64,000 bases of DNA, taken from positions 434,001 to 498,000 of the forward strand of contig NZ_CP020946.1 in the NCBI RefSeq assembly GCF_002208115.1, in the 5' to 3' direction. Made by a program: the position numbers and the translations under genes. This stretch comes from Bdellovibrio bacteriovorus (GTDB lineage: Bacteria; Bdellovibrionota; Bdellovibrionia; Bdellovibrionales; Bdellovibrionaceae). The notes beneath the pieces are model-generated. The model ran no database searches, was not told the DNA's origin, and saw only the letters and a list, made by a program, of their open reading frames with translations. Of this stretch, positions 7,456-47,924 are shown piece by piece (the first letter of the stretch is position 1; each line of letters starts with the position of its first letter).

Positions 7456-7584
7456 AAAAGCTCCTTTGTTTTTTTGGTGTCGAAACAAGGGATTGCGCGG
7501 ACCGTGCCACAGGGGAAATGAATAAATTGATTTTGAGGGTGTGGCGCGCGAAAAAGCCACAGACACGGTGACAACCAAGGCGCA

Positions 7585-35924: not shown

Positions 35925-36320
35925 ATGGATCCCAATCAGAAACCCAAAGGCAAATTATCTATCGGCTCGGAAGTACTACAGAGACTTTTCGAAAATGGCA
36001 AGTCGCCATTGTCCGAGCAGTTTATGCGCTGGAAACTATGGGCAAAATGGGAAGAAGTTGTGGGTCCGACCATCGCCAAAAATGCCGAACCGGTGGGTTT
36101 TCAGAGGGGTGTTTTGTACGTTTGGGTGCGAAACTCGTCCTGGATGCAGCAGATGATCTTTATGAAGGATCCTATCCGCGACACCATCAATCAGAAGTTT
36201 GAAAACAACTTTGTAAAATATATCAAGTTCACCCTGGATCGCCGGGAGGTTCCGACTGAGGACACCTCCACTTTCAAAGAGATGATCCAGAAAATCGCAC
36301 CAGAATCCGACGACGACTAA
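35925..36320 (+). CDS. DciA-like (DUF721) protein
   Basis: A 131-residue protein of the DUF721/DciA type, which in many bacteria loads the replicative helicase DnaB. Support is the motif WEEVVGPTIAKNAEPVGFQRGVLYVWVRNSSWMQQM, in which the pattern W.vvG..i..n..p....gvLyv.v..ssw is that of the KH-like DciA domain. A Glu/Asp-rich C-terminus follows. It shares a 23-bp divergent gap with trmFO; I see no SD. Its stop codon overlaps the first bases of the palindromic element at 36319. Assigned by pattern only. Confidence 0.72.
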   Translation: MDPNQKPKGKLSIGSEVLQRLFENGKSPLSEQFMRWKLWAKWEEVVGPTIAKNAEPVGFQRGVLYVWVRNSSWMQQMIFMKDPIRDTINQKFENNFVKYIKFTLDRREVPTEDTSTFKEMIQKIAPESDDD

Positions 36321-36450
36321 GGCTGATGAAAAAGGCTCATCTGACTGCGTTGTCTGGGCCAGTCCTCGCTTCGACGTGCTTGGAGCACGCCTGCGCTGCG
36401 GGTTGGCCCATCCGCCTTGCATCTGAACCTTTTTGATCAGCCTTTTTTTT
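36319..36450. repeat. Long palindromic element, copy 1
   Basis: A 126-base imperfect palindrome centred near 36382. The outer arms 36319-36335 and 36428-36444 pair over 17 bases with one mismatch. Inner arms TGGGCCA/TGGCCCA (36355-36361, 36404-36410) and an apical hairpin CGTGCT-TGG-AGCACG (36375-36389) are concentric with it. The stem is followed by T8, so it may end transcription from the DciA-like gene. Its apex TCCTCGC..GACG and CTGCGCTGCGG is shared with copies 2 and 3. I have a memory of similar intergenic palindromes in other delta-type proteobacteria, which I cannot verify here. Confidence 0.75.
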
Positions 36451-36456
36451 AAATAT

Positions 36457-39030
36457 TTATTTTAGGTTTTTTAGAGCGGATAGCCATGGGTTCATCAGTT
36501 TTTCGAGCTGAAGGCGGCTTTCTTCCGGCAGATGCGGTTTCAACTCGCTGAGTGCCAGCAGGGTGTTGATACGCTCGGGCAGACTGAGTTTGCTGCCGTC
36601 GCTGTTGATATAGAATTCTTCTTTGGCGTTGAACATCTGGCGGTTCATCGCATAGTAAACTTCCTGAGCGGACCACAGATAAGAATCAATTTTCGTGATC
36701 TGCCAGCCCTTTAACAGCGCACGAATCGCCAGGGCCTGTTGTTCGACGCGATAGTCTTTGTTCACTTCCAGCGTGCGTTCATTCAGATTCATTTTGGTCA
36801 CAGCCAGCTTGTGGGCTTTGATCAGCTGATTGGAAATAAAATTGGAAAGCGCCAGGATCAACAGACGCATGTCTTTGCGGCCTGCATTTAAAATATCCAA
36901 AGGCGCTTCGCCGTTGGCGTCTTTTTCAAGCAGGATCGATGATTTGGTGTTTTCTACACCTTCGGTGGCATCCAGGAACTCGCTGAGCGCCAGCAGGAAG
37001 TTTGCCGTGTCGCGGGTGCTGACCGTCTGCGTGCGTTCGCCTTTTTTGATGTCAACGATTCCGGCCATGACAGCGGTTTCATTGGTTGTGCCATAGCTGT
37101 CTGCCCAAAGCAGATTGTTGTTCAGACTCAGCATAAACACCGGGGTTGCTTTTTTGGTGATGTCCTGAAGCAAAACCGCCGCATTCCCCAGATTCAGAGC
37201 AAAGAGCATGTCTTTCGGGAACAGCGGCTGTTGCAGGTCTTCGTGCTGGGCGTCCTGAGTCAGATCCTGCGCTTTGATCGGACCCAACTGTTCATCATAG
37301 GCGGTTTTCTTCCAGTCGGCCGTCAGGCGCATCATGCGGCTTAAACCACGAATTTGCGATGCAAAGGCTGCCGCTGAAAAGTCTTTTTCATAAGTCAGCT
37401 CGTGATCTGCATGATAGGCATCACGCAGCTTGATGATATCAGGGACGCGGAAGGAAAGTCCCGGGTCTTTGGAGGCATCAAAATTCATTATGTCCAGCAA
37501 GGTGCCTTCATGATTCACCGGAGCCAACAGGGCCGGAACCAGATTGTTCTCCATGTCACGATAGCCAGCAATTGCCACCAGCTTGTTCACCTGCGCCAGC
37601 ATTGCGGCAAAGGCATTCGGATCGTTGGCAGGCGATTCTTCCAGTAAAAGGACATTGGCCGACATCGCCGGACCAATGGAGTCTGCGCGCAATTGCGGGG
37701 AGGCTGCCGCCGGCTTCAGATTCAGAGATTTGCTGGTGGAGGCTTCAAACAGAACCTGTCCGCCTTCAAAGCCAGGCAGCATGCCGTCGGTGGCGGGCAG
37801 GACTTTCTTTTGCCAGACCTTAAACAGGTTGCGCACATAGTTCTGATAGCCGTCACGCACCCGTGTGATGGCTGCCGCTTTATCCGTCAGGCCCACATCG
37901 ATGTTGTCAGCGAAGGTCTGGGGCATTGTCTTTACGAATTCAGCAGCGAAGGCCTCAATGGAGGTCACAACATACTGGCGGGTGGCGTTGTTCAAATCGC
38001 GCTGCAAAGTCTCTACACCGAATTTTTTGATTTTCGGAAGGATGAAGATCTTTTTGGTGATGCCGTCGATGATGCCGCCGTTGCAGCCTTCGGTGGCCAG
38101 GCAGATCAATTCGTCCTCGTTCTGTTTGGACAGGAAATCATACAGTGTTTCATTCACCGGTTTGAAATTCTGTTCGCGCTCGGCGGGGGTCAGCATGCGC
38201 CATACGTCCACGATCACAGTTAAAGCGCTCTGAGCATCCGACATGCGATCCAGGCCCACCGCGAGTTTGCGTCCCTGCAGCATGCTGGCCTGAAGTTCCG
38301 GGGTCAGTTCGACCTCAAATTGCTTAACGGCGTCGTCAATAAGGCGCAAAGTTTCTGAAAGGGTTTTGGTGGCCGCAAGTTTTGCCAGCAGGGCGCGCAC
38401 TTCCGCAAACAAGGGTGTGGTTTTCTTCTGGAACTCTTCCGTCAGACCACTTTCGATAACCGGGATTAGTCCCATATTGGGGATTTCCGCCAGCACCATG
38501 CCCGTGAATATTTCGGCGCGAGAAAGAATCTCGTTCAGATTTTTAATGGGAACCTGAGGCAGTCCCGGGCCCAGAGCCTCAATGTGTCTGCGAATCACCG
38601 GACGCGATTTTTCGATATCGGCCAGAACTTCAGTCAAAGTCCCGCGGACTTGTTCCTGGGTCTGAGAAGTGGCCAGAGATGCAAACGGGGAATCCGCAAG
38701 CTCCGTTGTCAAAGTGGCCTGAGGAGTGCTGTAATATTTGCGAATCCAGGAAAGCCCGGTCTGCTTTAGCGCCGGTGTTTCGGTGGAAGCACCCAAGTGG
38801 TGCAGAGCCTCAGCAATTTCAAAGAACCGGGCGCTGCCGATGGTGCCAGCCCAGTACAATTCCGGAGTGTCTTTGCCAAACTGACGAACACGCAGGTTCA
38901 ACCGGGTGTCTTTGGATTGCGGGCCGAAAGAGGTTTGGGGTTTTTCAAAGACACGTTCTTCCACTTTCGGAGCGCACGCCGAAAGAACAAGGGCCGAGGA
39001 CATCAGAATGTGCAAAGACTTTCTTAACAT
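36457..39030 (-). CDS. Large lipoprotein, unknown function
   Basis: An 857-residue lipoprotein with lipobox LSAC at C19 and then an extended, largely helical body without recognised domains. It is rich in Leu and Ala, with stretches such as TLTTELADSPFASLATSQTQ. A CLATEGCNGG segment near the middle has two cysteines. SD AAAGGAGGG precedes ATG 39030. It follows the outer-membrane protein gene by 12 bp, so they are probably co-transcribed and may act together in the envelope. No function assigned. Confidence 0.75.
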   Translation of the reverse strand: MLRKSLHILMSSALVLSACAPKVEERVFEKPQTSFGPQSKDTRLNLRVRQFGKDTPELYWAGTIGSARFFEIAEALHHLGASTETPALKQTGLSWIRKYYSTPQATLTTELADSPFASLATSQTQEQVRGTLTEVLADIEKSRPVIRRHIEALGPGLPQVPIKNLNEILSRAEIFTGMVLAEIPNMGLIPVIESGLTEEFQKKTTPLFAEVRALLAKLAATKTLSETLRLIDDAVKQFEVELTPELQASMLQGRKLAVGLDRMSDAQSALTVIVDVWRMLTPAEREQNFKPVNETLYDFLSKQNEDELICLATEGCNGGIIDGITKKIFILPKIKKFGVETLQRDLNNATRQYVVTSIEAFAAEFVKTMPQTFADNIDVGLTDKAAAITRVRDGYQNYVRNLFKVWQKKVLPATDGMLPGFEGGQVLFEASTSKSLNLKPAAASPQLRADSIGPAMSANVLLLEESPANDPNAFAAMLAQVNKLVAIAGYRDMENNLVPALLAPVNHEGTLLDIMNFDASKDPGLSFRVPDIIKLRDAYHADHELTYEKDFSAAAFASQIRGLSRMMRLTADWKKTAYDEQLGPIKAQDLTQDAQHEDLQQPLFPKDMLFALNLGNAAVLLQDITKKATPVFMLSLNNNLLWADSYGTTNETAVMAGIVDIKKGERTQTVSTRDTANFLLALSEFLDATEGVENTKSSILLEKDANGEAPLDILNAGRKDMRLLILALSNFISNQLIKAHKLAVTKMNLNERTLEVNKDYRVEQQALAIRALLKGWQITKIDSYLWSAQEVYYAMNRQMFNAKEEFYINSDGSKLSLPERINTLLALSELKPHLPEESRLQLEKLMNPWLSALKNLK

Positions 39031-39042
39031 GGGCCCTCCTTT

Positions 39043-40263
39043 CTAGAAGAACATCATCAAGTTCATTTCCTGCGCCAACTGGCGTTCGATATTGACGCCG
39101 GCAAAGACGTCGGAAATCTGATAGCTGATCATCATGGGAATCAAGGCGGTCTTTTTAAAATATGAATTCACCGTGCTGTAAGTCAGCTCGGCCTTCACGC
39201 GGTGAGCGGTGGAGGCGGAATTCAAAGCCAGCAGGTCATAGCGTGTATTGCGATCGCCACGATAGACGTCTTTTTCTTTGGTCGAATAGTCATAACCTGC
39301 CCCCAGCGTCCAGCTGTCGCTGAATTCATAGAAGGCATTGCCACCGACGGTGGCGATATTACCCAAAGTGCGGGTCACGTCCTCTTTAGTGGTGGCATCA
39401 GGCAAGGTGTCGTCTTCATCGGTGGGAACCCGCGCTGTGATGTTGTCCGGGATGTTCACCAGATAAGAAACGTAAGGAACCAGATAGGCTCCGGCAAAGA
39501 TCTTGTGGGAATAAACGAAAGAATTCGTGATGTTCGTGCGACCGAATACATTCAGCGCCGCCAGATCGTCGGTGTCGTATTTAGGGCCCGTCGGCAGATT
39601 CAACTGGGCTTGATGGGCCATGGTGATGTCGCCTTTTTCATAGAACTTGTAAATGCTCACCACGTTGACATCACCGATGAAACTTTCATCGCGGTTCGCA
39701 AGTGGTTTGTAACCCTTTGCCGTCAAAGTCTCGTTGGTGGCTTTGCTCAAGTCCGTATTCAAAGCCGCATCCAGTTCCGGATTCAGTCCTGAGAACTGCT
39801 GGCGATAGTATTCAATATTCGAGAACTCCTGCGAAAGGGAGATCTTGTTGGTGTAAGACACGACCGGCACGCCGACACCGATTGTCCAGTTCTTGGTGAT
39901 ACCGCGGGCGAAAACCGGGGCATAGTATTGAACCTTCGGCATGGTGTCCACGCGCAGGACGCCCAGATTGAAGGCATCCCCCAGATTGTGACCACCGAAG
40001 CGGTTTAAAGCGTCAATCAGGCGTTTGGCGTCGGAATTAAACTTAGCCAGGGATTTGGCGTCGAAGACTACGGATTTGTAGTCCCCCAGATTCATCAGGC
40101 TGCCGCTTTCGGTGTATTTCTGGCTGATGCCGTCGATCATCCCAAAGCGCAGGGAAGGGCTGTTGATCCCCTCGGGCAGTGTGCTTGTTCCCATAAGCGA
40201 ACCATAGGCGCAAATTGAGCCTAAAATTCCGCAAAATGTTACAAGTAACGCCCGAATATTCAC
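39043..40263 (-). CDS. Predicted outer-membrane beta-barrel protein
   Basis: A 406-residue exported protein from a GTG start at 40263, supported by AGAAGGAAAT just upstream. A signal peptide of about 20 residues ends around CAYGS. The rest is made of amphipathic strands (NWTIGVGVPVVSYTNK, TMAHQAQLNLPTGPKYD, KIFAGAYLVPYVSYLVN, SWTLGAGYDYSTKEKD) and ends LMMFF with terminal Phe, the outer-membrane insertion signal. The layout recalls phenol-degradation meta-type or transporter-like barrels. Paired with the lipoprotein gene downstream. Confidence 0.75.
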   Translation of the reverse strand: MNIRALLVTFCGILGSICAYGSLMGTSTLPEGINSPSLRFGMIDGISQKYTESGSLMNLGDYKSVVFDAKSLAKFNSDAKRLIDALNRFGGHNLGDAFNLGVLRVDTMPKVQYYAPVFARGITKNWTIGVGVPVVSYTNKISLSQEFSNIEYYRQQFSGLNPELDAALNTDLSKATNETLTAKGYKPLANRDESFIGDVNVVSIYKFYEKGDITMAHQAQLNLPTGPKYDTDDLAALNVFGRTNITNSFVYSHKIFAGAYLVPYVSYLVNIPDNITARVPTDEDDTLPDATTKEDVTRTLGNIATVGGNAFYEFSDSWTLGAGYDYSTKEKDVYRGDRNTRYDLLALNSASTAHRVKAELTYSTVNSYFKKTALIPMMISYQISDVFAGVNIERQLAQEMNLMMFF

Positions 40264-40358
40264 AGCATTTCCTTCTAAAGCATTTAGATTGTATTTAAAA
40301 GTTTCTTCTTAATCTTACTAACTAAAACCTGAAATTCTCATGCCACTCACGCTGCGTA

Positions 40359-41192
40359 TTACTCTTGTGAAAGAATCTTTGCCGTCGCTTCAATCCAATC
40401 CATGTGGAACTGAACGTTCATGTACTCACCCTGCATGATGCACAAGTTCCATTCTTCCTTTGGCAATTTGTCATCGAAGAATGTTTTCGAAGCCACGCCC
40501 ACCACCATGGTGTCGCTGCCAATCGTGGTGATCGCAGGTCCGCCGGAATCACCCTGACAGAAGCCTTTTCCTTGTGATTGATCCACGATGAAAGCAGGTT
40601 CGGTCGGACTGTACTTGGCGATATTCAAATCTGCCGTGCGCAGAATGCCGACATTGCCTGGGAAGGACGGACGGCCGTCCATGCGACCGAAACCAGCCGC
40701 TTTGATGCTGTTTAACCCCAGATCCACGTCTTTGGCCGGCAGTTTCATGATCTCGATATTTTCTGGCAGGGCCGTCTCAAGCAGTACCAGCGCCAGATCG
40801 TACTTTTTGTTTCCGTTTTCGTATTCAGGATGAACCAGGAATTTCGAGGCCTTGTAATAAATCGCCTCGCCATCCTCGTTTTTCAATTCAATTCGGTGTA
40901 AAGCGTCTTCGCGCTTTGAAATGCAGTGGCCCGCCGTCAGAATCAGACGGGGAGAAATAGCACTGGCTGTGCACTGGGAAACTTTGTATCGGGTGATGGT
41001 CCCGCGCTCATCTTCGGTGATTTGCGGGTCATACAGCACGCGGAAGTTCAGGGCCTGTTTTGCCGTGGCTTCAGTCACGGCCACGTCGTTCCCGCCGACT
41101 ATGCCGTCAAAGTTGGAATTAACCAGGGAATCTTTGGAGATCTGACCCTGGCAGGCGGACAATATGAGTGACAATACGATCAACTTTCTCAT
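40359..41192 (-). CDS. Trypsin-like serine protease lipoprotein
   Basis: S1-family serine protease of 277 residues. The catalytic triad is visible: His in LTAGHC, Asp in YDLALVLLE and Ser in FCQGDSGGPA. The N-terminus carries lipobox LILSAC with Cys14, so the enzyme is probably lipid-anchored and faces the periplasm or the outside. IVGGNDVAV near residue 32 resembles the IVGG activation start of trypsins, so cleavage would remove the anchor and activate it. ATG 41192 begins the signal; a TTG six codons upstream is open. A predator would find such a protease useful, but prey cleavage is not shown. Confidence 0.9.
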   Translation of the reverse strand: MRKLIVLSLILSACQGQISKDSLVNSNFDGIVGGNDVAVTEATAKQALNFRVLYDPQITEDERGTITRYKVSQCTASAISPRLILTAGHCISKREDALHRIELKNEDGEAIYYKASKFLVHPEYENGNKKYDLALVLLETALPENIEIMKLPAKDVDLGLNSIKAAGFGRMDGRPSFPGNVGILRTADLNIAKYSPTEPAFIVDQSQGKGFCQGDSGGPAITTIGSDTMVVGVASKTFFDDKLPKEEWNLCIMQGEYMNVQFHMDWIEATAKILSQE

Positions 41193-41273
41193 GCCGGGTC
41201 TGACTTGCAAAATTGCAACTCAGCTTATATGCATCCCAAGGGGTTTTCGGCTGTCAAAAAGTTGGATAGTGCC

Positions 41274-41570
41274 CTAAAAAGACCACGAAATTTGGGCAGC
41301 CGCTCCCACAGCTTCCGTTTGCATCAGGCTGGAAACCTGCAAAGTGGCGGAGGTGGCTGGGATCTTTTCAGACCAACTGACCTTCATTTCGCGCACATCG
41401 CCGGTGGAGTCTTCATTGTCGATGTAGATCACTTCGGAGCTGATGCGGTTTTCGCCCAGTCCATCCATCGGAAGTTTCAGGCGGTGTTCAGAGGCCTGCG
41501 CCGTGCCCGCCAAGATCAGTAGAAGAGTAACGCCGATTGAAATTGCTTCGAGTAGTTTTGAATTTTCCAT
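41274..41570 (-). CDS. Small secreted protein, unknown function
   Basis: A 98-residue protein with an N-terminal hydrophobic segment (LEAISIGVTLLLILAGTAQA) that looks like a signal peptide with cleavage before SEH. The remaining part is short, Ser-rich and contains alternating polar and hydrophobic residues (REMKVSWSEKIPATSATLQV) ending in ISWSF, a C-terminal Phe. ATG 41570 chosen for the signal; SD is weak. No cysteines in the mature part and no family recognised. It sits between the Mla operon terminator and the protease gene. Confidence 0.55.
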   Translation of the reverse strand: MENSKLLEAISIGVTLLLILAGTAQASEHRLKLPMDGLGENRISSEVIYIDNEDSTGDVREMKVSWSEKIPATSATLQVSSLMQTEAVGAAAQISWSF

Positions 41571-41670
41571 GAATCTAAAACTAAAGATCTTTGAAACGAT
41601 TCTCCACTCGGGTTTCCAGGATTTCTGGACCAAGTGGAGGAAGCTTGCAGAATTAAAACGGTACTAAACC

Positions 41671-41696
41671 GAAAAGACCAGCAGAAAGCCAGTCTT
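41671..41696 (-). terminator. Probable terminator of the Mla operon
   Basis: In the minus RNA AAGACTGGC pairs with GCTGGTCTT (two G-U wobbles) around a 5-base loop and is followed by TTTTC. A second hairpin GACTAGC/GCTAGTC (41704-41724) overlaps the mlaD-like stop codon. Confidence 0.55.
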
Positions 41697-41718
41697 AGAA
41701 GGGGACTAGCTGAAAGGG

Positions 41719-42534
41719 CTAGTCTTTGGTTTCTTTTTCGATGGAAGTGCGAAGCAGGGACTCGACGTGATTCTTGCGATTGGAACCACCCAGCATGTTT
41801 TTCAGGCGGTTGTGAATGGACGGATCGTTGATCAGTGCGCCCAGACTGCCTTCGCCACGGTCGATCTTGGACAGAATGGAATCCAGTTTTTCGATGGATT
41901 TACCCAGCTTTTCGCCGCCTCCGTGGGCATTCATCTGCGCCACGAATTTCTGGCTGTCTTTGCTGGTCTGGGAAAAATTCGTGCTGGCGGTTTCAAGGTT
42001 CGCCATGATTTTACCCATGCGGTTTTCCACGTTCATCGCATGGGTGATTTTGTAAAGCTCGTTGATGATATCAAAGATTCTGTTGGTTTCATTGCCACGC
42101 TCAGAAACGATACCCAAAAAGTCCGTGGGCTTTGCCACTTCCAGAATATCGCCTTCTTTCAGGCTTTCAGCGCGCGGGTCCCCTGGGATGATAAAGACGA
42201 ACTTGTCACCCAAGGCCCCTTGCGTGCGGATTTCCACCTGGGAACCCTGACGGATACGGTCGATATAGTCCTCGTTGATTTTCATCTTTACGTCCAAAGA
42301 GTTTTTCTCGGGCAGGAAGGTGATGGTCTCAACGTTCCCGACGGTCACACCGGACAAGGACACAACGCTTCCCACCGCCAGGCCCTGAACCTGATCAAAG
42401 TGAGCATGCACACGCACATAGCTTGTGAACAAGGCCTTGTCCGCGCCGAGCATAAAGATGGTGGCCAGAATCAGGAAGATCCCGATGGTCAAAAAGATTC
42501 CGACTTTGATTTGGGTGCCGAAGTGAGATTCCAT
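41719..42534 (-). CDS. mlaD: MCE/MlaD-type lipid-transport substrate-binding protein
   Basis: A 271-residue MCE protein. One N-terminal membrane anchor (about 10-30, VGIFLTIGIFLILATIFML) precedes the MCE domain (about 35-115: VRVHAHFDQVQGLAVGSVVSLSGVTVGNVETI). GALGDKFVFIIPGD follows. The C-terminal part is helical and extends into the periplasm. MlaD forms the hexameric phospholipid-binding ring of the MlaFEDB complex in the inner membrane. The ATG overlaps the stop of mlaF by one base (TAATG). The C-terminal extension is longer than in E. coli MlaD. Confidence 0.9.
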   Translation of the reverse strand: MESHFGTQIKVGIFLTIGIFLILATIFMLGADKALFTSYVRVHAHFDQVQGLAVGSVVSLSGVTVGNVETITFLPEKNSLDVKMKINEDYIDRIRQGSQVEIRTQGALGDKFVFIIPGDPRAESLKEGDILEVAKPTDFLGIVSERGNETNRIFDIINELYKITHAMNVENRMGKIMANLETASTNFSQTSKDSQKFVAQMNAHGGGEKLGKSIEKLDSILSKIDRGEGSLGALINDPSIHNRLKNMLGGSNRKNHVESLLRTSIEKETKD

Positions 42535-43280
42535 TAAGCACTTTCTCCGTTGATGAACTGGCTCATGGCCCCTGGGGGCTCTTGTTTGAGTTTTTCAATT
42601 GTGTACTGCTCGCCGATTTTTCCATTCAGCAGCAGGGCGACCTTGTCACAGACGGCATAGACCGTCGGCATGTCGTGGGTCACCAGAATCGAGGTCACAC
42701 CCTTGGCCTTCAAGCTTAAGATGGATTCCTGGATGCGTTTGGTGTTGTAAGGGTCAAGACCCGCTGTCGGCTCATCGTACAAAACGACTTCGGGGTGCAT
42801 CATCATCGCGCGGGCCAGGCCCACACGCTTTTGCATACCACCGGAAAGATTTCCCGGCAGCAGGTGTTCAGATCCCGGCAGGCCAAACTCCTGCAGGGTT
42901 TCTTTGATCTGGCGCGAGATTTCCTCTTCGCTGAAGTTGAAATGTTCACGTAATGGATACGCCAGATTTTCGTACACCGACATCGAGTCAAACAAAGCCC
43001 CGCCCTGGAAGGCATAGGCCACTTTCTTGCGGATTTCGATCAGTTCGTTTTCTTTCATCGGAGTGATATCCACGCCGTTGATCAGAATCTGCCCGCTGTC
43101 AGGTTTTTCCAAACCCACCAGACTGCGCAGAATAACACTTTTTCCGGCGCCGGATCCGCCGATCAGGCCTAGACATTCACCTTTACGCACATAGAAGTTC
43201 ACCCCCTGGTGCACTTTCTTGCTGCCAAAGGACTTTTTAAAGTCCACCACTTCGATAACGCCTTGTCTGGTTTCGCTCAT
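42534..43280 (-). CDS. mlaF: MlaF-type ABC transporter ATPase
   Basis: ATPase of the inner-membrane phospholipid transporter, 248 residues. Walker A GGSGAGKSVILRSL, Q-loop AYAFQGGALFDSM, signature LSGGMQKRVGLARA, Walker B VVLYDEPTAGLDP and H-loop VTHDM. The AFQGGALFDSMSV sequence is typical of the MlaF branch. It overlaps mlaE upstream (ATGA) and mlaD downstream (TAATG). Drives phospholipid movement across the envelope. Confidence 0.95.
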   Translation of the reverse strand: MSETRQGVIEVVDFKKSFGSKKVHQGVNFYVRKGECLGLIGGSGAGKSVILRSLVGLEKPDSGQILINGVDITPMKENELIEIRKKVAYAFQGGALFDSMSVYENLAYPLREHFNFSEEEISRQIKETLQEFGLPGSEHLLPGNLSGGMQKRVGLARAMMMHPEVVLYDEPTAGLDPYNTKRIQESILSLKAKGVTSILVTHDMPTVYAVCDKVALLLNGKIGEQYTIEKLKQEPPGAMSQFINGESA

Positions 43281-44065
43281 ATCATTTTCTCCACGATCCA
43301 GAAAAGTTTTGAAAGGAAGAAGTCACCGACCACAATCAGAATAGAGGACACGACCACCGCTTTGGTGGTGGCGATGCCGACTTCTTTCGTGCCGGCTTTC
43401 ACATTCAGACCGAAATAGCAGGACGGGATGGCAATAAAGAGGGCAAAGAAGAAGGTCTTCGCAAATCCGGACAGATAATCCTGGATGTTGGAAGTCGTCA
43501 TCACTTTCAGATAATAGAAATTAGGATCCAGATTCAGTTCGGTCGCACCGATGATCAGGCCGCCCAAATTTCCGACGATGTTGGCGATAGACACCAGGAT
43601 CGGCAAAGTGATCAGGCACGCCAGAACACGGGGAATAACGATTTTCTTGATCGGGGATGTGCCCAGAGCACGAATCGCATCAATTTGCTGGGTCACGACC
43701 ATACTGCCAATTTCACTGGCGATACCGGCACCCACACGCGCCGCCAGCATCAGACTTGTAAACACCGGACCCATTTCACGCAAGATGGTCACGGCCAGCA
43801 GTTTAGGAACATAAAGTTTACCACCGAATTTTTCCAGACCCATCCCAAACTGCAGGGACATCACCATGCCGATGCTGACTGCGGTGATCACGATCAGCGG
43901 CAAAGAACGCATGCCGATCTGATAAATTTGTTCAGAGATCAGTTTGTAATAGATACGGCCACGGATGGTTTCACGGAAAACATCACGGCTTAGCAGCCCC
44001 ACTCCACCAATAAAGTGGAGGACTTCCATCATAAAGACTGTGAAGGGCAGGGCGAGGTTATTCAT
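43277..44065 (-). CDS. mlaE: MlaE-type permease
   Basis: A 262-residue membrane permease of the MlaE family with about five or six transmembrane segments and the family motif LREMGPVFTSLMLAARVGAGIASEIGSMVVTQQIDA in the middle. It forms the membrane pore with MlaF ATPases. The ATG at 44065 overlaps the upstream stop (TGATG); a GTG one codon earlier is possible. Upstream, a lipoprotein gene is coupled to it. Confidence 0.94.
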   Translation of the reverse strand: MNNLALPFTVFMMEVLHFIGGVGLLSRDVFRETIRGRIYYKLISEQIYQIGMRSLPLIVITAVSIGMVMSLQFGMGLEKFGGKLYVPKLLAVTILREMGPVFTSLMLAARVGAGIASEIGSMVVTQQIDAIRALGTSPIKKIVIPRVLACLITLPILVSIANIVGNLGGLIIGATELNLDPNFYYLKVMTTSNIQDYLSGFAKTFFFALFIAIPSCYFGLNVKAGTKEVGIATTKAVVVSSILIVVGDFFLSKLFWIVEKMI

Positions 44066-44547
44066 CACGGAGCCTTAAACTGAGCCTTAAAGTCTTCAAA
44101 GTGTTTCTGTTCAGCCGCAAACTGCTTCTGAACGCCACCATAACTCAATGTATAGTTGCAGTTGTTTTTCTTAAAAACCAACAAAGCCAATTGCACTGGA
44201 ATGCCATCGACCGTGCCCGTAGCAACGGATTGACGGGCCTCGCGGCCATTGAACATCAAAGTGTCTGACTTAACATCCAGATTGGAAAGCGCCGCCAAAG
44301 ACTCGGTTTCCATTTGCTGTAAGGAAGGATCCGAGCCACCACAATCAGAAACAAAAGAAATGGTATTGCCCGTAGCCGAACTCAACCAGGCTTTGTCAGA
44401 GTTACCAGCATCAATGGATTTAAACGGAGAAGCAGGCGAAGAAAACTCCACACCCTTAGCAGGCACAGATTTCCGCCCCGGCAAATTCACCGACACACAC
44501 CCAACAAAAAGCAAACTCAAGATGCAACAAACAAAGATGTTCTTCAT
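44065..44547 (-). CDS. Lipoprotein coupled to the Mla operon
   Basis: A 160-residue predicted lipoprotein with lipobox LLFVGC near residue 17. The mature part has a globular appearance with cysteines in SDCGGS and KNNCNYTLSY. The gene opens the Mla operon and its stop overlaps the start of mlaE (TGATG), so it could be an outer-membrane or periplasmic partner replacing MlaA or MlaC; this is inference only. ATG 44547 was chosen with GGATGG as SD; an in-frame ATG three codons upstream is also open. Confidence 0.72.
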   Translation of the reverse strand: MKNIFVCCILSLLFVGCVSVNLPGRKSVPAKGVEFSSPASPFKSIDAGNSDKAWLSSATGNTISFVSDCGGSDPSLQQMETESLAALSNLDVKSDTLMFNGREARQSVATGTVDGIPVQLALLVFKKNNCNYTLSYGGVQKQFAAEQKHFEDFKAQFKAP

Positions 44548-44610
44548 AGCACCCATCCATCGGAATAAATTGAGGAAAAATCCAGAGCCAGAATGCCTAA
44601 ACAGTGCCTC

Positions 44611-44742
44611 GGTCTAGGGAAGGGAGGGGGCCCTACCGGCTTATCCCCTGCGAACACATCCTCGCGGACGCGATCCCCGTTGGGGATCTGCTGCTGCGGA
44701 ACTTGGGGCTAATCCGGTAGGGCCCCCTCCCTTCCCTAGACC
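44611..44742. repeat. Long palindromic element, copy 2
   Basis: Arms 44611-44639 and 44714-44742 are perfect 29-base inverted repeats, continuing after single mismatches with TTA/TAA and CCCC/GGGG. The apex has hairpin GATCCCC-GTT-GGGGATC (44672-44688), flanked by TCCTCGCGGACGC (44659-44671) and CTGCTGCTGCGG (44688-44699). It sits in the 596-bp gap between the Mla lipoprotein gene and the flagellar operon, 131 bases before the centre-line of copy 3. It has no U tract, so a simple terminator is unlikely. Confidence 0.8.
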
Positions 44743-44880
44743 AAGCTGTAACGTCTTTCTAACTCAGAATTTTCCCACTGCTTCTAGCGCCCCACCGAGA
44801 GCTCTCGTTAGCGCGTAGAAAAAGTTCAGAGAACACACGTCGTGTGCACAAGCCCACAAAATCTGCCGGCACACCAGGCG

Positions 44881-44991
44881 CTTGGCAGGGGCTTAGGCAA
44901 GCCAGACGCGAGTTCCGCAGCAGCACGTCCCAAAGGGACGGCGTCCGCGAGGACTGTCCGAAGCGGCTGGATTGACTAAGCCCCTGCCAAG
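44881..44991. repeat. Long palindromic element, copy 3 (inverted orientation)
   Basis: Arms 44881-44896 and 44976-44991 pair perfectly over 16 bases and continue on both sides with interruptions (out to about 44877/44995, inward through CAAGCCAG-type pairs). The apical hairpin is CGTCCC-AAA-GGGACG (44926-44940). Read on the minus strand the apex is TCCTCGCGGACGC (44953-44941) and TGCTGCTGCGG (44925-44915), the same module as copy 2 in opposite orientation. Arms share no similarity with copies 1 or 2. Confidence 0.78.
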
Positions 44992-45092: not shown

Positions 45093-45108
45093 TGGCACCG
45101 TATGTGCA
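45093..45108 (+). promoter_or_regulatory. Sigma54 promoter of the flagellar operon
   Basis: TGGCAC at 45093-45098 carries the -24 GG (45094-45095); the -12 GC (45106-45107) follows after exactly 10 bases in GTGCA. This matches the sigma54 consensus TGGCAC-N5-TTGCA at all but one of the core bases. The transcript would start near 45119, leaving a short leader with SD AAGGGG before the GTG at 45144. Confidence 0.72.
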
Positions 45109-45143
45109 ATAGCAGAGCGAAGGGAAGAGAAGGGGTTCAAGGA

Positions 45144-47924
45144 GTGAACACTTTACGCAATTTGATCGTGGCAGGATGCCTGTTCTTTGGTCTAGCTTCA
45201 GCGCAAGCGGCGAAGGTCAATGGAATCATTAATTTTCAGGGCGACACTGTTCACATGGAACTGTCGGGCCAGCAAAATTGGGATTACGACGTCAAACGCC
45301 TTGATAAAAAAGGTCAGGTTGTCGTTGAAATGACGGTGCCGGCGTTGGATGAATCCACGATCGGTTCTCTTTCTTCATTTAAAAGTGATTTTGTGACGTC
45401 GGTGGCTGTGGACCGCAAGGGTCCGGATGGCAAGAACGTGATTCAGTTCACCCTTTCCGGTGAAGACATTGAGACATTTGATTACCTGACGGATCAGCCT
45501 TCTCGCCTGATCATGGATTTCTATGTGAATCCTTCCGCGAAACCTAAAAAAGACAGCAAAGCGGTTGCTAAAAAAGACACACAGATCCCGACCGAGCTGC
45601 CTGCTAAAGATTTGAAACCTGTAGCAAAAGCCAAAACAGACAAGAACCGCAAACCTGCGGCGGATACTTTGGCGATTGCGGATCAGGGTGTGGGCTTTGC
45701 CGCTAATGATTCGGTGAAATCCGGTATCTTTGATGGTGGCGATCCGGACTATTCCCGCTTCTCGGTTAAAGACTATGAGATCAAAGAAGAGGCGATGATC
45801 CGCGCCAAGGATAACTACTATATTCCGTTCCCGATGCTGGAAACCCCGGTCAGTTACTGGGAGAAAATGAAGATCACTCCGGCGATCTATCAGATTTCCC
45901 CGCAGTCCACGGAAGAAAACAAACAGGCTCGCTTGCTTTTGACGCTTTTTGAAAAGCAGCGTTATGGCGTTTATCTGAAAACGCAAGCTTGGTTCAAAGA
46001 CAAGTATCCAAAATCTGAATACAACGAAGTCATTGATTTCATGACTGCCGACGTTCACCTGGCCCTGTGGCAGGAAGAAGGCCGCATGAAGGATTATGAC
46101 GAGGCGATGCAGAAATATAAGGAAGCGGTCGCAAAGTATCCGCGCTCTCCTCTGGCGGAAAGAACGTCCGTGAAGACAGGCTTTTTGGCTTTGGAAAAAG
46201 GCGATGCGCTGAATTCCCTGCGTTTGTTCCAGGAACACATCGACAATAAAAAATTCTCTGGCAAAGAATCCGTTTCAAAAGACCTGGCTCGTCTGGGCAT
46301 GGGTTTGGCTTTCATGAAGCTGAACAAATGGACTGATGCGATTGCCCAGTTTGATCAGGTTGAAAAAGAAGCGACCAACCGCGATTTGAAAGTGGAAGCA
46401 GCTTACCGTCGTGGAGACGTTTGGGTGCGTGGCAAGAACTATGCAAAAGCGGTTGATGAATATCAGAAAGCTTTGAAGAAGTATCCAGAGGGGCAGGGTT
46501 CTTACCCGAATGCCTTCTTCAATCAGGCGGAATCTTTGTTCATGATGAACAAGTACCCGCAAAGTCTGGACACTTATCGTGAATTTGTGAAGAAATTCCC
46601 AAGCAGCAATCACTCGGCCTTTGCGATGACCCGCATGGGTGAATTGCTTGAAATCTTCGGTGCCGACAAGTCCCGCGTGATGGGGGCTTATCTGGAAACT
46701 TACTTCCGCTATGGTGAAACTCCGAATGCGGTGATTGCGCGTTTGCGTCTGTTGAGTGCGCGCATGAAGGGCATGAAGCCGAAGGAAGTGAACCATGCGG
46801 TTGAAGAAATCATGTCTTTGGCTAAAAAAATTGACCTTCCGAACATCGAGCAGTTTGCAACTGTGATGGTCGCGGATGGTTACACTCACCGTGGGGAACA
46901 CCAAAAAGCGGTGGATCTGCTTTCCAAATACTATAAAGAACATCCAACATCTGTGGATGTTCCGTTGCTGACCAACCGTATTGTTTCCAACATCAACGAC
47001 AAGCTGGAATCCGAAGTCAATGAAGGCAACTTCATCAAGGCTTTGAAGACCCACAGTCAATATGCTGACAACTGGCTGAAAAATTCAAAGCGTCTGGATA
47101 CAAAATATAATGTCGGTCGTGCCTTTGAAATGGCCGGCGTTCCGGTTGAAGCGGAAAGATACTACAAAGATGTTTTGAATCGTATCTATGCGATTCGTGG
47201 CACCGCGGAAGCCAAAGAAATCCAGGTGAAAGAGCAGATTCCTTCTGAAGACGAGCTGAACCTGCGTCTTTCCAACGTGTTCACTCAAGAACAAAAATAC
47301 AACCAGGCCTATGACTATCTGAAAAACATCAAAGCTCCTGAAAAGATGGATGAAAAAGCCCAGATTGAACGCGTGAACATCGCGGTTCGTCTGCTGGAAA
47401 AACGTGGTGATAATGACTCTGCGGTTCGTTACCTGGGAGAATTGCTGCGCACCTGGAAAGGCCAGCCTCAACTGGTGGCAGAACCTTACTTGAAACTTGC
47501 AGAGCTTCAGGTGAAACAAAGCAAGCCGGATGAAGCCATCCAGTCTTTGGAAATGATCGACAAATTGCAAAGTGATTCGGGCAAGATTTCCCCGGTTATC
47601 CACGCCAAAGCGCTGGAAATGATGGGTGATATCTATCTGGATAAAAAGCAGCAGGATCTGGCGACAGGTTCCTATGAAAAGCTGCTGGAAAAATACGAAG
47701 ACAATCGTCCTCTGTCCTCTATCCGCTACAAGCTGGGGCAGATCTACTTCAAAGCAGGTGAGATCCAGAAGGCGGCTGAGGTTTGGAATGACTTCAAAGG
47801 TGACAAGAGCGGGTTCTGGAAGAATCTGGCTCAGGAGCAGTTGAAGAATTCAGAATGGCGCGACGGTTACAAGAAATATATCAAAAGAATTCCAGCTATG
47901 TCTGAGAACGAGCAAGGCCAATAG
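45144..47924 (+). CDS. AMIN- and TPR-domain periplasmic protein heading the flagellar operon
   Basis: A 926-residue exported protein from GTG 45144, which has AAGGGG eight bases upstream; earlier ATGs are open but less well placed. Signal peptide ends ASAQA near residue 22. Residues 25-120 resemble an AMIN domain (VNGIINFQGDTVHMELSGQ.. to SRLIMDFYV), which targets peptidoglycan. A Lys/Pro-rich linker follows, then many TPR-like helical pairs (DYDEAMQKYKEAVAKYPRS, NYAKAVDEYQKALKKYPEG, HQKAVDLLSKYYKEHPTS, DLATGSYEKLLEKYEDN). Its position suggests a role in building or anchoring the flagellar motor in the envelope. Confidence 0.85.
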   Translation: MNTLRNLIVAGCLFFGLASAQAAKVNGIINFQGDTVHMELSGQQNWDYDVKRLDKKGQVVVEMTVPALDESTIGSLSSFKSDFVTSVAVDRKGPDGKNVIQFTLSGEDIETFDYLTDQPSRLIMDFYVNPSAKPKKDSKAVAKKDTQIPTELPAKDLKPVAKAKTDKNRKPAADTLAIADQGVGFAANDSVKSGIFDGGDPDYSRFSVKDYEIKEEAMIRAKDNYYIPFPMLETPVSYWEKMKITPAIYQISPQSTEENKQARLLLTLFEKQRYGVYLKTQAWFKDKYPKSEYNEVIDFMTADVHLALWQEEGRMKDYDEAMQKYKEAVAKYPRSPLAERTSVKTGFLALEKGDALNSLRLFQEHIDNKKFSGKESVSKDLARLGMGLAFMKLNKWTDAIAQFDQVEKEATNRDLKVEAAYRRGDVWVRGKNYAKAVDEYQKALKKYPEGQGSYPNAFFNQAESLFMMNKYPQSLDTYREFVKKFPSSNHSAFAMTRMGELLEIFGADKSRVMGAYLETYFRYGETPNAVIARLRLLSARMKGMKPKEVNHAVEEIMSLAKKIDLPNIEQFATVMVADGYTHRGEHQKAVDLLSKYYKEHPTSVDVPLLTNRIVSNINDKLESEVNEGNFIKALKTHSQYADNWLKNSKRLDTKYNVGRAFEMAGVPVEAERYYKDVLNRIYAIRGTAEAKEIQVKEQIPSEDELNLRLSNVFTQEQKYNQAYDYLKNIKAPEKMDEKAQIERVNIAVRLLEKRGDNDSAVRYLGELLRTWKGQPQLVAEPYLKLAELQVKQSKPDEAIQSLEMIDKLQSDSGKISPVIHAKALEMMGDIYLDKKQQDLATGSYEKLLEKYEDNRPLSSIRYKLGQIYFKAGEIQKAAEVWNDFKGDKSGFWKNLAQEQLKNSEWRDGYKKYIKRIPAMSENEQGQ

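What the first reader, a model, noticed from the sequence alone, without database searches (positions are those of the whole stretch)
36319..44991. Three long palindromes with unrelated self-complementary arms but one shared apical module
Copies at 36319-36444, 44611-44742 and 44881-44991 (the last inverted) are 110-132 bases, concentric, and have different stem sequences of up to 29 perfect pairs. The apex is the same: TCCTCGC then GACG on one side, a 6-7 bp hairpin with a 3-base loop of differing sequence, then a CTGC-rich strand ending TGCGG. Conserved unpaired bases with covarying stems are what a selected structure or a mobile palindromic element would show. The module could be an RNA internal loop, a DNA cruciform target, or the recognition site of a REP-type transposase or nucleoid protein.
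Basis: seen in the sequence. Interest (0 to 1): 0.78.

Follow-up and report, generated by a model that had tools for sequence, protein, structure and literature searches.

The report
Mobile DNA hairpins with disposable arms
The three palindromes belong to two families of movable, hairpin-forming DNA elements scattered between genes of predatory bacteria; in one family the two long arms can be swapped for completely new sequence between close relatives yet stay complementary to each other, while a short central module hardly changes.

Summary
All three palindromes exist at the stated places, and the shared apex occurs 9 times in this genome against 0 in the reversed control. They are two families, not one.

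Type A (36319-36444) has conserved arms. It is a clean insertion after the dciA stop codon, where sister genomes have 4 bp. Its boxes recur in at least 120 loci of many phyla. In Bdellovibrio, 30 of 31 copies point the same way relative to the replication fork.

Type B (44611-44742, 44881-44991) has up to 15 box-positive copies per Bdellovibrio genome (13 here) and occurs in three other genera of the phylum. Two fixed boxes enclose a loop of 4-77 nt; outside them lie long arms unique to each locus. Between close relatives the arms are unchanged or replaced in blocks, complementarity kept.

Top-strand G.T pairs are nearly absent; A.C mismatches and fold energies point to the bottom strand. I therefore favour a folded single-stranded DNA hairpin, non-autonomous and replication-linked, over an RNA or terminator (0.45). 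Defining features of REP, attC and Rfam families were tested and not met. The mobilising enzyme is unknown. I found no description of either family in the literature searched.

The parts
36319..36444 (+).
   Evidence: Arms; fold; empty sites in sister genomes:
36345..36352 (+). Type-A left box CTGCGTTG
   Evidence: conserved in 73-copy listing and in other phyla
36363..36401 (+). Type-A apex TCCTCGC-GACG-hairpin-CTGCGG
36412..36425 (+). Type-A right box CCGCCTTGCATCTG
44611..44742 (+). Type-B palindrome 1, locus-specific arms, 29 uninterrupted pairs
44651..44665 (+). Type-B left box CGAACACATCCTCGC (variant of CGGACAGTCCTCGC)
   Evidence: consensus
44694..44703 (+). Type-B right box CTGCGGAACT
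   Evidence: consensus
44881..44991 (-). Type-B palindrome 2, inverted relative to palindrome 1; arms identical in G006 but replaced in block in G001
44947..44960 (-). Type-B left box CGGACAGTCCTCGC of palindrome 2
   Evidence: G000:C1:478947-478960
35925..36320 (+). dciA-like gene (DciA, PF05258) whose stop codon abuts the type-A element
36457..39030 (-). Convergent 857-aa ORF, no Pfam match
44065..44556 (-). Divergent neighbour of the type-B pair, 163 aa, no Pfam match
45102..47924 (+). Divergent neighbour of the type-B pair, 940-aa TPR protein, used for the orthologous-locus test

Best explanation
A trans-acting protein, not identified here, would recognise the conserved unpaired boxes and the fixed mismatch zones rather than the arm sequence. 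Shown: multi-copy; structure conserved; presence or absence as whole units; almost no top-strand G.T in type-B arms; bottom-strand wobble and stability bias; type-A orientation tied to the replication fork; block replacement of type-B arms with complementarity kept. Inferred: that folded DNA rather than RNA is what is recognised; that insertion or retention is coupled to replication forks; that type-B arms are kept complementary by copying one arm from the other (fold-back or template-switch synthesis at the hairpin).
For: Copies present or absent as units: type A, type B. Copy number and zero controls. Wobble asymmetry: type-B arms beyond pair 11 have 1573 Watson-Crick, 27 A.C, 7 G.T, 21 other; wide type-A outer stems 1534 Watson-Crick, 142 A.C, 34 G.T. 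Bottom strand folds better: type A 109 of 115 wide and 30 of 34 Bdellovibrio copies; type B only with DNA parameters, 52 to 18. Covariation on the bottom strand: 25 of 41 pairs. Fork orientation of type A 30 of 31, p = 3e-8, and the five copies not behind a co-directional gene all follow the fork. Arm block replacement.
Against: No mobilising enzyme found. G.T/G.U tolerance on the bottom strand is also what an RNA from that strand would show, and with RNA parameters type B has no strand preference. Fork orientation could result from selection on existing copies rather than from insertion. GC skew gives no clear fork bias for type A in other phyla. Type-B fork bias is modest (62:30) and inflated by orthologues.
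Confidence: 0.45

Rival explanations
1. They are structured RNA elements transcribed from the bottom strand, for example a protein-binding or self-processing RNA with sequence-free stems and conserved purine-rich internal loops.
For: Bottom-strand G.U use at pairs 18/113, 19/112 and invariant 55/71, and purine-rich conserved internal loops; A.G mismatches at fixed arm positions on the bottom strand; RNA-parameter stability bias for type A.
Against: Type-A bottom-strand transcription would run head-on to the fork in 30 of 31 copies and antisense to the upstream gene in 29 of 34. None of the eight published HD100 attack-phase sRNAs overlaps a copy (assuming G001 is HD100). No Rfam family matches at gathering score, and weak matches in other copies are long-hairpin miRNA models. 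Type-B arms have far fewer wobble pairs than I would expect of RNA stems (2% at most).
Confidence: 0.2
2. They are transcription terminators or 3' UTR stabilisers, type A in particular, spread between convergent or tandem genes.
For: 29 of 34 type-A copies lie just behind a gene that reads into them; the window copy ends in T8 between convergent genes that are 4 bp apart in sister genomes.
Against: A T-tract follows only 8 of 34 type-A and 4 of 72 type-B copies. One type-A copy is inserted upstream of an existing intrinsic terminator. Type B is most often between divergent genes (17 of 39).
Confidence: 0.15
3. They are binding sites for a nucleoid, segregation or repair protein acting on cruciforms or hairpins, with no mobility of their own.
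For: Few copies per genome, conserved position in close relatives, strong fork orientation of type A, similar boxes in distant genera.
Against: Presence/absence between close relatives and insertion at tRNA 3' ends and stop codons look like insertions; many genomes have few or no copies.
Confidence: 0.1
4. The arms are a neutral product of template switching: palindromes that repair and rewrite themselves, with only the boxes under constraint.
For: Template switching is known to create and repair perfect stems (PMC8794818). G.T intermediates are almost missing from the arms. One clean C-G to G-C double change (L041/L048). Inverted copies of the flank at outer arm ends.
Against: Template switching copies existing sequence and does not supply new sequence; the replaced arm of G001 was found nowhere else in four genomes with up to 3 mismatches. 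The boxes and fixed mismatch zones need a recognising factor or selection.
Confidence: 0.1

Closest known systems
Integron attC sites
   Same: Imperfect hairpins recognised by structure; bottom strand preferred; variable sequence with conserved unpaired positions; bottom strand mostly on the leading-strand template (25 of 30 sedentary chromosomal integrons in PMC5371416; 30 of 31 type-A copies here)
   Different: No attC R boxes (0 of 34 type A; 1 of 72 type B on each strand); conserved part is at the apex side, variable part at the base; no cassette arrays
REP / REPIN elements (GTAG and CGTC superfamilies, RAYT-linked; PMC3733652)
   Same: Intergenic, palindromic, non-coding, multi-copy, often behind genes
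   Different: 110-190 nt instead of 20-40 nt; few copies; tags not enriched; the RAYT flanks inspected mostly carry other repeats; arms of type B differ at every locus
MITEs and bacterial palindromic repeats such as ERIC, YPAL, NEMIS, RUP
   Same: Non-autonomous, gained and lost as units, fold along their whole length
   Different: Type-B arms are not shared between copies, so they cannot serve as common terminal inverted repeats; no clear target duplication seen
Template-switch-maintained stems (Monttinen and Loytynoja, PMC8794818)
   Same: Perfect stems kept complementary through double changes
   Different: Described for RNA gene stems; here whole arms are replaced around a fixed core that also changes genomic position
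Rho-independent terminators
   Same: Hairpin behind genes; the window type-A copy ends in a T run
   Different: Most copies lack a T-tract; type B also lies between divergent genes

Membership tests
REP/REPIN (RAYT-mobilised) | GTAG (or CGTC) tetranucleotide at one end of the palindrome | tested here: not met
   GTAG at 4/34 type A and 7/72 type B, CGTC at 6/34 and 16/72; shuffled expectation 5.9, 13.8, 5.2, 13.9
REP/REPIN (RAYT-mobilised) | Copies flanking RAYT genes | tested here: inconclusive
   RAYTs in 21 of 24 genomes; most flanks carry other repeats (TGACCGATACCCC; AAAAGGTACCTGGT), yet two G013/G015 RAYTs have a type-A copy downstream. RAYT and type-A counts correlate, rho 0.60, uncorrected for phylogeny
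REP/REPIN (RAYT-mobilised) | 20-40 bp unit, high copy number | tested here: not met
   110-190 nt, at most about 17 copies found per genome
Integron attC site | R'' and R' boxes (RYYYAAC ... GTTRRRY) | tested here: not met
   0 of 34 type A on either strand; 1 of 72 type B on each strand
Integron attC site | Recombined by an integron integrase within cassette arrays | not tested
   No integrase search was run; copies are solitary or in pairs, not arrays
Integron attC site (works like) | Folded bottom strand, placed on the leading-strand template | tested here: met
   Type A. Type B weaker (62:30; DNA parameters only)
MITE | Common terminal inverted repeats and direct target duplication | tested here: inconclusive
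   Type A has a conserved outer stem, type B has no common outer sequence; searches show no clear direct duplication, but few junctions were available
Intrinsic terminator | T-tract directly after the hairpin | tested here: not met
   8 of 34 type A, 4 of 72 type B (the window type-A copy does have one)
Known structured RNA (Rfam 15) | Match at gathering score | tested here: not met
   Window: none. Ten wide type-A loci: only tRNAs. Further type-B loci at E up to 1: sub-threshold miRNA-like hairpin matches
CRISPR-like spacers / guide hairpins | Arms match foreign or own targets | tested here: not met
   no convincing match of the arms tested in four genomes, phages or plasmids; only three arms tested
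Structured RNA expressed from the element | Discrete transcript | not testable with these tools
   Only published coordinates of 8 attack-phase sRNAs could be compared; none overlaps

The most novel reading that the evidence does not exclude
Type B is a mobile core that re-makes its arms. The conserved boxes and loop travel or persist, and each site acquires its own long perfect arms by hairpin-primed fold-back synthesis that can run 4-6 bp into the left flank. Arm sequence is then disposable and only arm pairing is inherited.
Probability: 0.15. Interest if true: 0.85.

Novelty: new variant of a known kind. Interest (0 to 1): 0.62.

Why it matters
Interspersed palindromes are a known kind, but an element whose long arms are replaced wholesale while pairing is kept separates structure from sequence unusually cleanly. 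It offers a natural series for asking whether hairpin pairing is kept by selection or by copying one arm from the other. Type A appears to be a very widespread palindrome family for which I found no description, and its strong replication-fork orientation in Bdellovibrio makes replication-coupled hairpin mobility, or selection against hairpins on the lagging-strand template, directly testable in many genomes.

Tried and rejected
RAYT as mobiliser: present in 21 of 24 genomes, but the flanks inspected mostly carry other repeats, and a search seeded with a Bdellovibrio RAYT found none in the 120 wide type-A loci. Arms as guides or spacers: no other match of palindrome-1 arms in four genomes, phages or plasmids; the box pattern is absent from viral contigs. 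Donor for a replaced arm: none in four genomes with up to 3 mismatches. Arms as simple copies of the flank: not supported at the G005/G003 empty site; only 4-6 bp elsewhere. Fork orientation of the wide type A by GC skew: inconclusive (67 to 52). Literature search by sequence fragments gave only unrelated hits.
Full report
OBSERVATION. The three palindromes are present as described, fold far better than shuffled sequence as RNA or DNA, and share TCCTCGC-GACG-hairpin-CTGCGG. A pattern for the apex hits 9 places in this 3.77-Mb genome and none when read backwards, and 23 of 24 Bdellovibrio genomes. Rfam gives no match at gathering score.

TWO FAMILIES. Extracting 73 copies separates them. Type A, the 36319 copy, is about 115-130 nt and conserved over most of its length: outer stem TGAAAAAGG/CCTTTTTGA, boxes CTGCGTTG and CGCCTTGCATCTG, apex hairpin. 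Type B, the 44611 and 44881 copies, has conserved boxes CGGACAGTCCTCGC and CTGCGGAACT and arms that differ from locus to locus. The left box alone occurs 13 times in this genome, 0-15 times per Bdellovibrio genome, and never in the reversed control. Between the boxes the loop comes in length classes 4-6, 22-29, 40-46 and 72-77 nt. Ninety-four copies have arms averaging 34 positions, up to 47. Type B with short loops also occurs in three other genera of the phylum with locus-specific arms; in G197 and G266 these are AT-rich.

Some of these share only the boxes and a hairpin and may be a looser family. The exact Bdellovibrio apex is confined to the genus within 369 genomes of the phylum, apart from scattered matches that look like chance.

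MOBILITY. Type A in the window looks like a clean insertion: sister genomes have TAA-ATCC-TTA or TAA-GCGT-TTA where this genome has the element between dciA and the convergent gene. Another type-A copy (L076) is present in G013 and absent in G015, between a stop codon and an intrinsic terminator. The type-B pair at 44611-44991 is present in the four genomes of the own clade; the other 19 species with the gene have a short intergenic region without it. One type-B copy is present in G005 and absent in G003 with about 95% flank identity, and one present in G000 and absent in G001. At several tRNA 3' ends (L013, L020, L089, and L298 in G008) the right arm ends in an inverted copy of the tRNA ACCA; the G000 copy at the same tRNA-Leu does not include it. 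At L368 the right arm ends in an inverted copy of the flank CTTGG. Direction of change (gain or loss) is inferred from presence patterns.

ARM TURNOVER. At orthologous type-B loci the flanks are mostly about 90-98% identical. The arms are either nearly identical (L045/L015, L040/L055) or replaced in block and still complementary (L042/L053, L043/L032, L039/L056, L322/L093). In palindrome 2 of the window G000 and G006 share nearly the same arm while G001, whose flanking protein is 99% identical over 200 aa, has a different stretch on both sides. That 20-mer occurs nowhere else in four genomes with up to 3 mismatches. Uncompensated single changes also exist (for example L372/L376).

WHICH STRAND, DNA OR RNA. 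In 72 type-B arms that share no 12-mer, beyond pair 11 there are 1573 Watson-Crick pairs, 27 A.C, 7 G.T and 21 others. In the wide type-A outer stems there are 1534 Watson-Crick, 142 A.C and 34 G.T. A.C on the strand read is G.T on the other, so wobble is better tolerated on the bottom strand. Type A also folds better as the bottom strand in 109 of 115 wide and 30 of 34 Bdellovibrio copies with RNA parameters; type B does so only with DNA parameters (52 to 18). RNAalifold on 28 bottom-strand type-A copies gives 41 pairs, 25 with double-sided changes. Mismatches in type-B arms cluster at positions 3-5 and 8-9 from the boxes, about half of them C.T or T.C on the strand read, i.e. G.A on the bottom strand.

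REPLICATION. With oriC taken at dnaA and the terminus as its antipode, the type-A top strand runs with the fork in 30 of 31 copies in complete genomes (binomial p = 3e-8), so the better-folding strand lies on the leading-strand template. Type A also tends to lie behind co-directional genes (29 of 34), but the five exceptions to that rule all follow the fork, and the single fork exception (G008, L064) lies behind a co-directional gene. In the window 26 of 58 called genes run with the fork (counted), so genes are not generally fork-aligned there. Type B is 62 to 30, with orthologous copies counted repeatedly. Sedentary integron attC arrays show the same preference (25 of 30).

BEST EXPLANATION AND RIVALS. 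A folded bottom-strand ssDNA hairpin recognised by an unidentified factor explains the wobble asymmetry, the fork orientation, the insertion behaviour and the independence of type B from gene orientation. A bottom-strand RNA remains the main rival: it would explain the wobble and the purine-rich internal loops, but for type A it would be head-on to replication and mostly antisense to its neighbour, and no published HD100 attack-phase sRNA overlaps a copy, assuming G001 (3,782,950 bp, dnaA at base 22) is HD100. Terminator function may be real for the window type-A copy, which ends in T8, but only 8 of 34 and 4 of 72 copies have a T-tract.

MEMBERSHIP. REP tags are not enriched and attC R boxes are absent from type A and at chance level in type B. 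RAYT genes are common, but the flanks inspected mostly carry other repeats; their number correlates with type-A number across 24 genomes without phylogenetic correction. No description of either family was found in the papers searched, a library that lacks most subscription journals.

CAVEATS. Copy counts are pattern-based lower bounds. Orthologous copies are not independent; where it mattered, arms sharing a 12-mer were collapsed. Gene contexts come from a simple ORF caller, not a full annotation.

Noticed in passing
L054, L057 (minus-strand copy), L330, L031, L062, L082; L421 about 7540-7580: Small twin-hairpin repeats with a TTCGG or CTTCG linker (for example CCCTTCGGGTGACGG, TCCTTCGGACTTCGCG) interrupt or replace one side of several type-A and type-B palindromes, as if a second, REP-like family targets the first.
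   Followed up: partly
L040 right flank; L244-L247 (own genome): RAYT genes of the own genome are bracketed by a different repeat, AAAAGGTACCTGGTTACTTTT and relatives, which also occurs beside a type-B copy.
   Followed up: no
L237, L238, L240, L249, L251 (G010, G013, G015): Other RAYT genes are bracketed by repeated TGACCGATACCCC motifs, some in tandem arrays.
   Followed up: no
window 44745-44880: The roughly 140-bp spacer between the two type-B palindromes contains further small palindromes (CGAGAGCTCTCG, TCTAGCGC..GCGCGTAGA, ACACGTCGTGTGC) that are kept in G001 and G006 but diverge in G007.
   Followed up: no
L407-L412 (G326, another class of the phylum): All six type-B matches lie on the + strand of their contigs and several share the upstream motif GTCGGGCCCACCTTTTGGTT, suggesting a larger repeat around the type-B core there.
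   Followed up: no
L234, L238: In G013 two type-A copies sit in tandem behind a RAYT gene; the corresponding G015 copy has an internal deletion.
   Followed up: no
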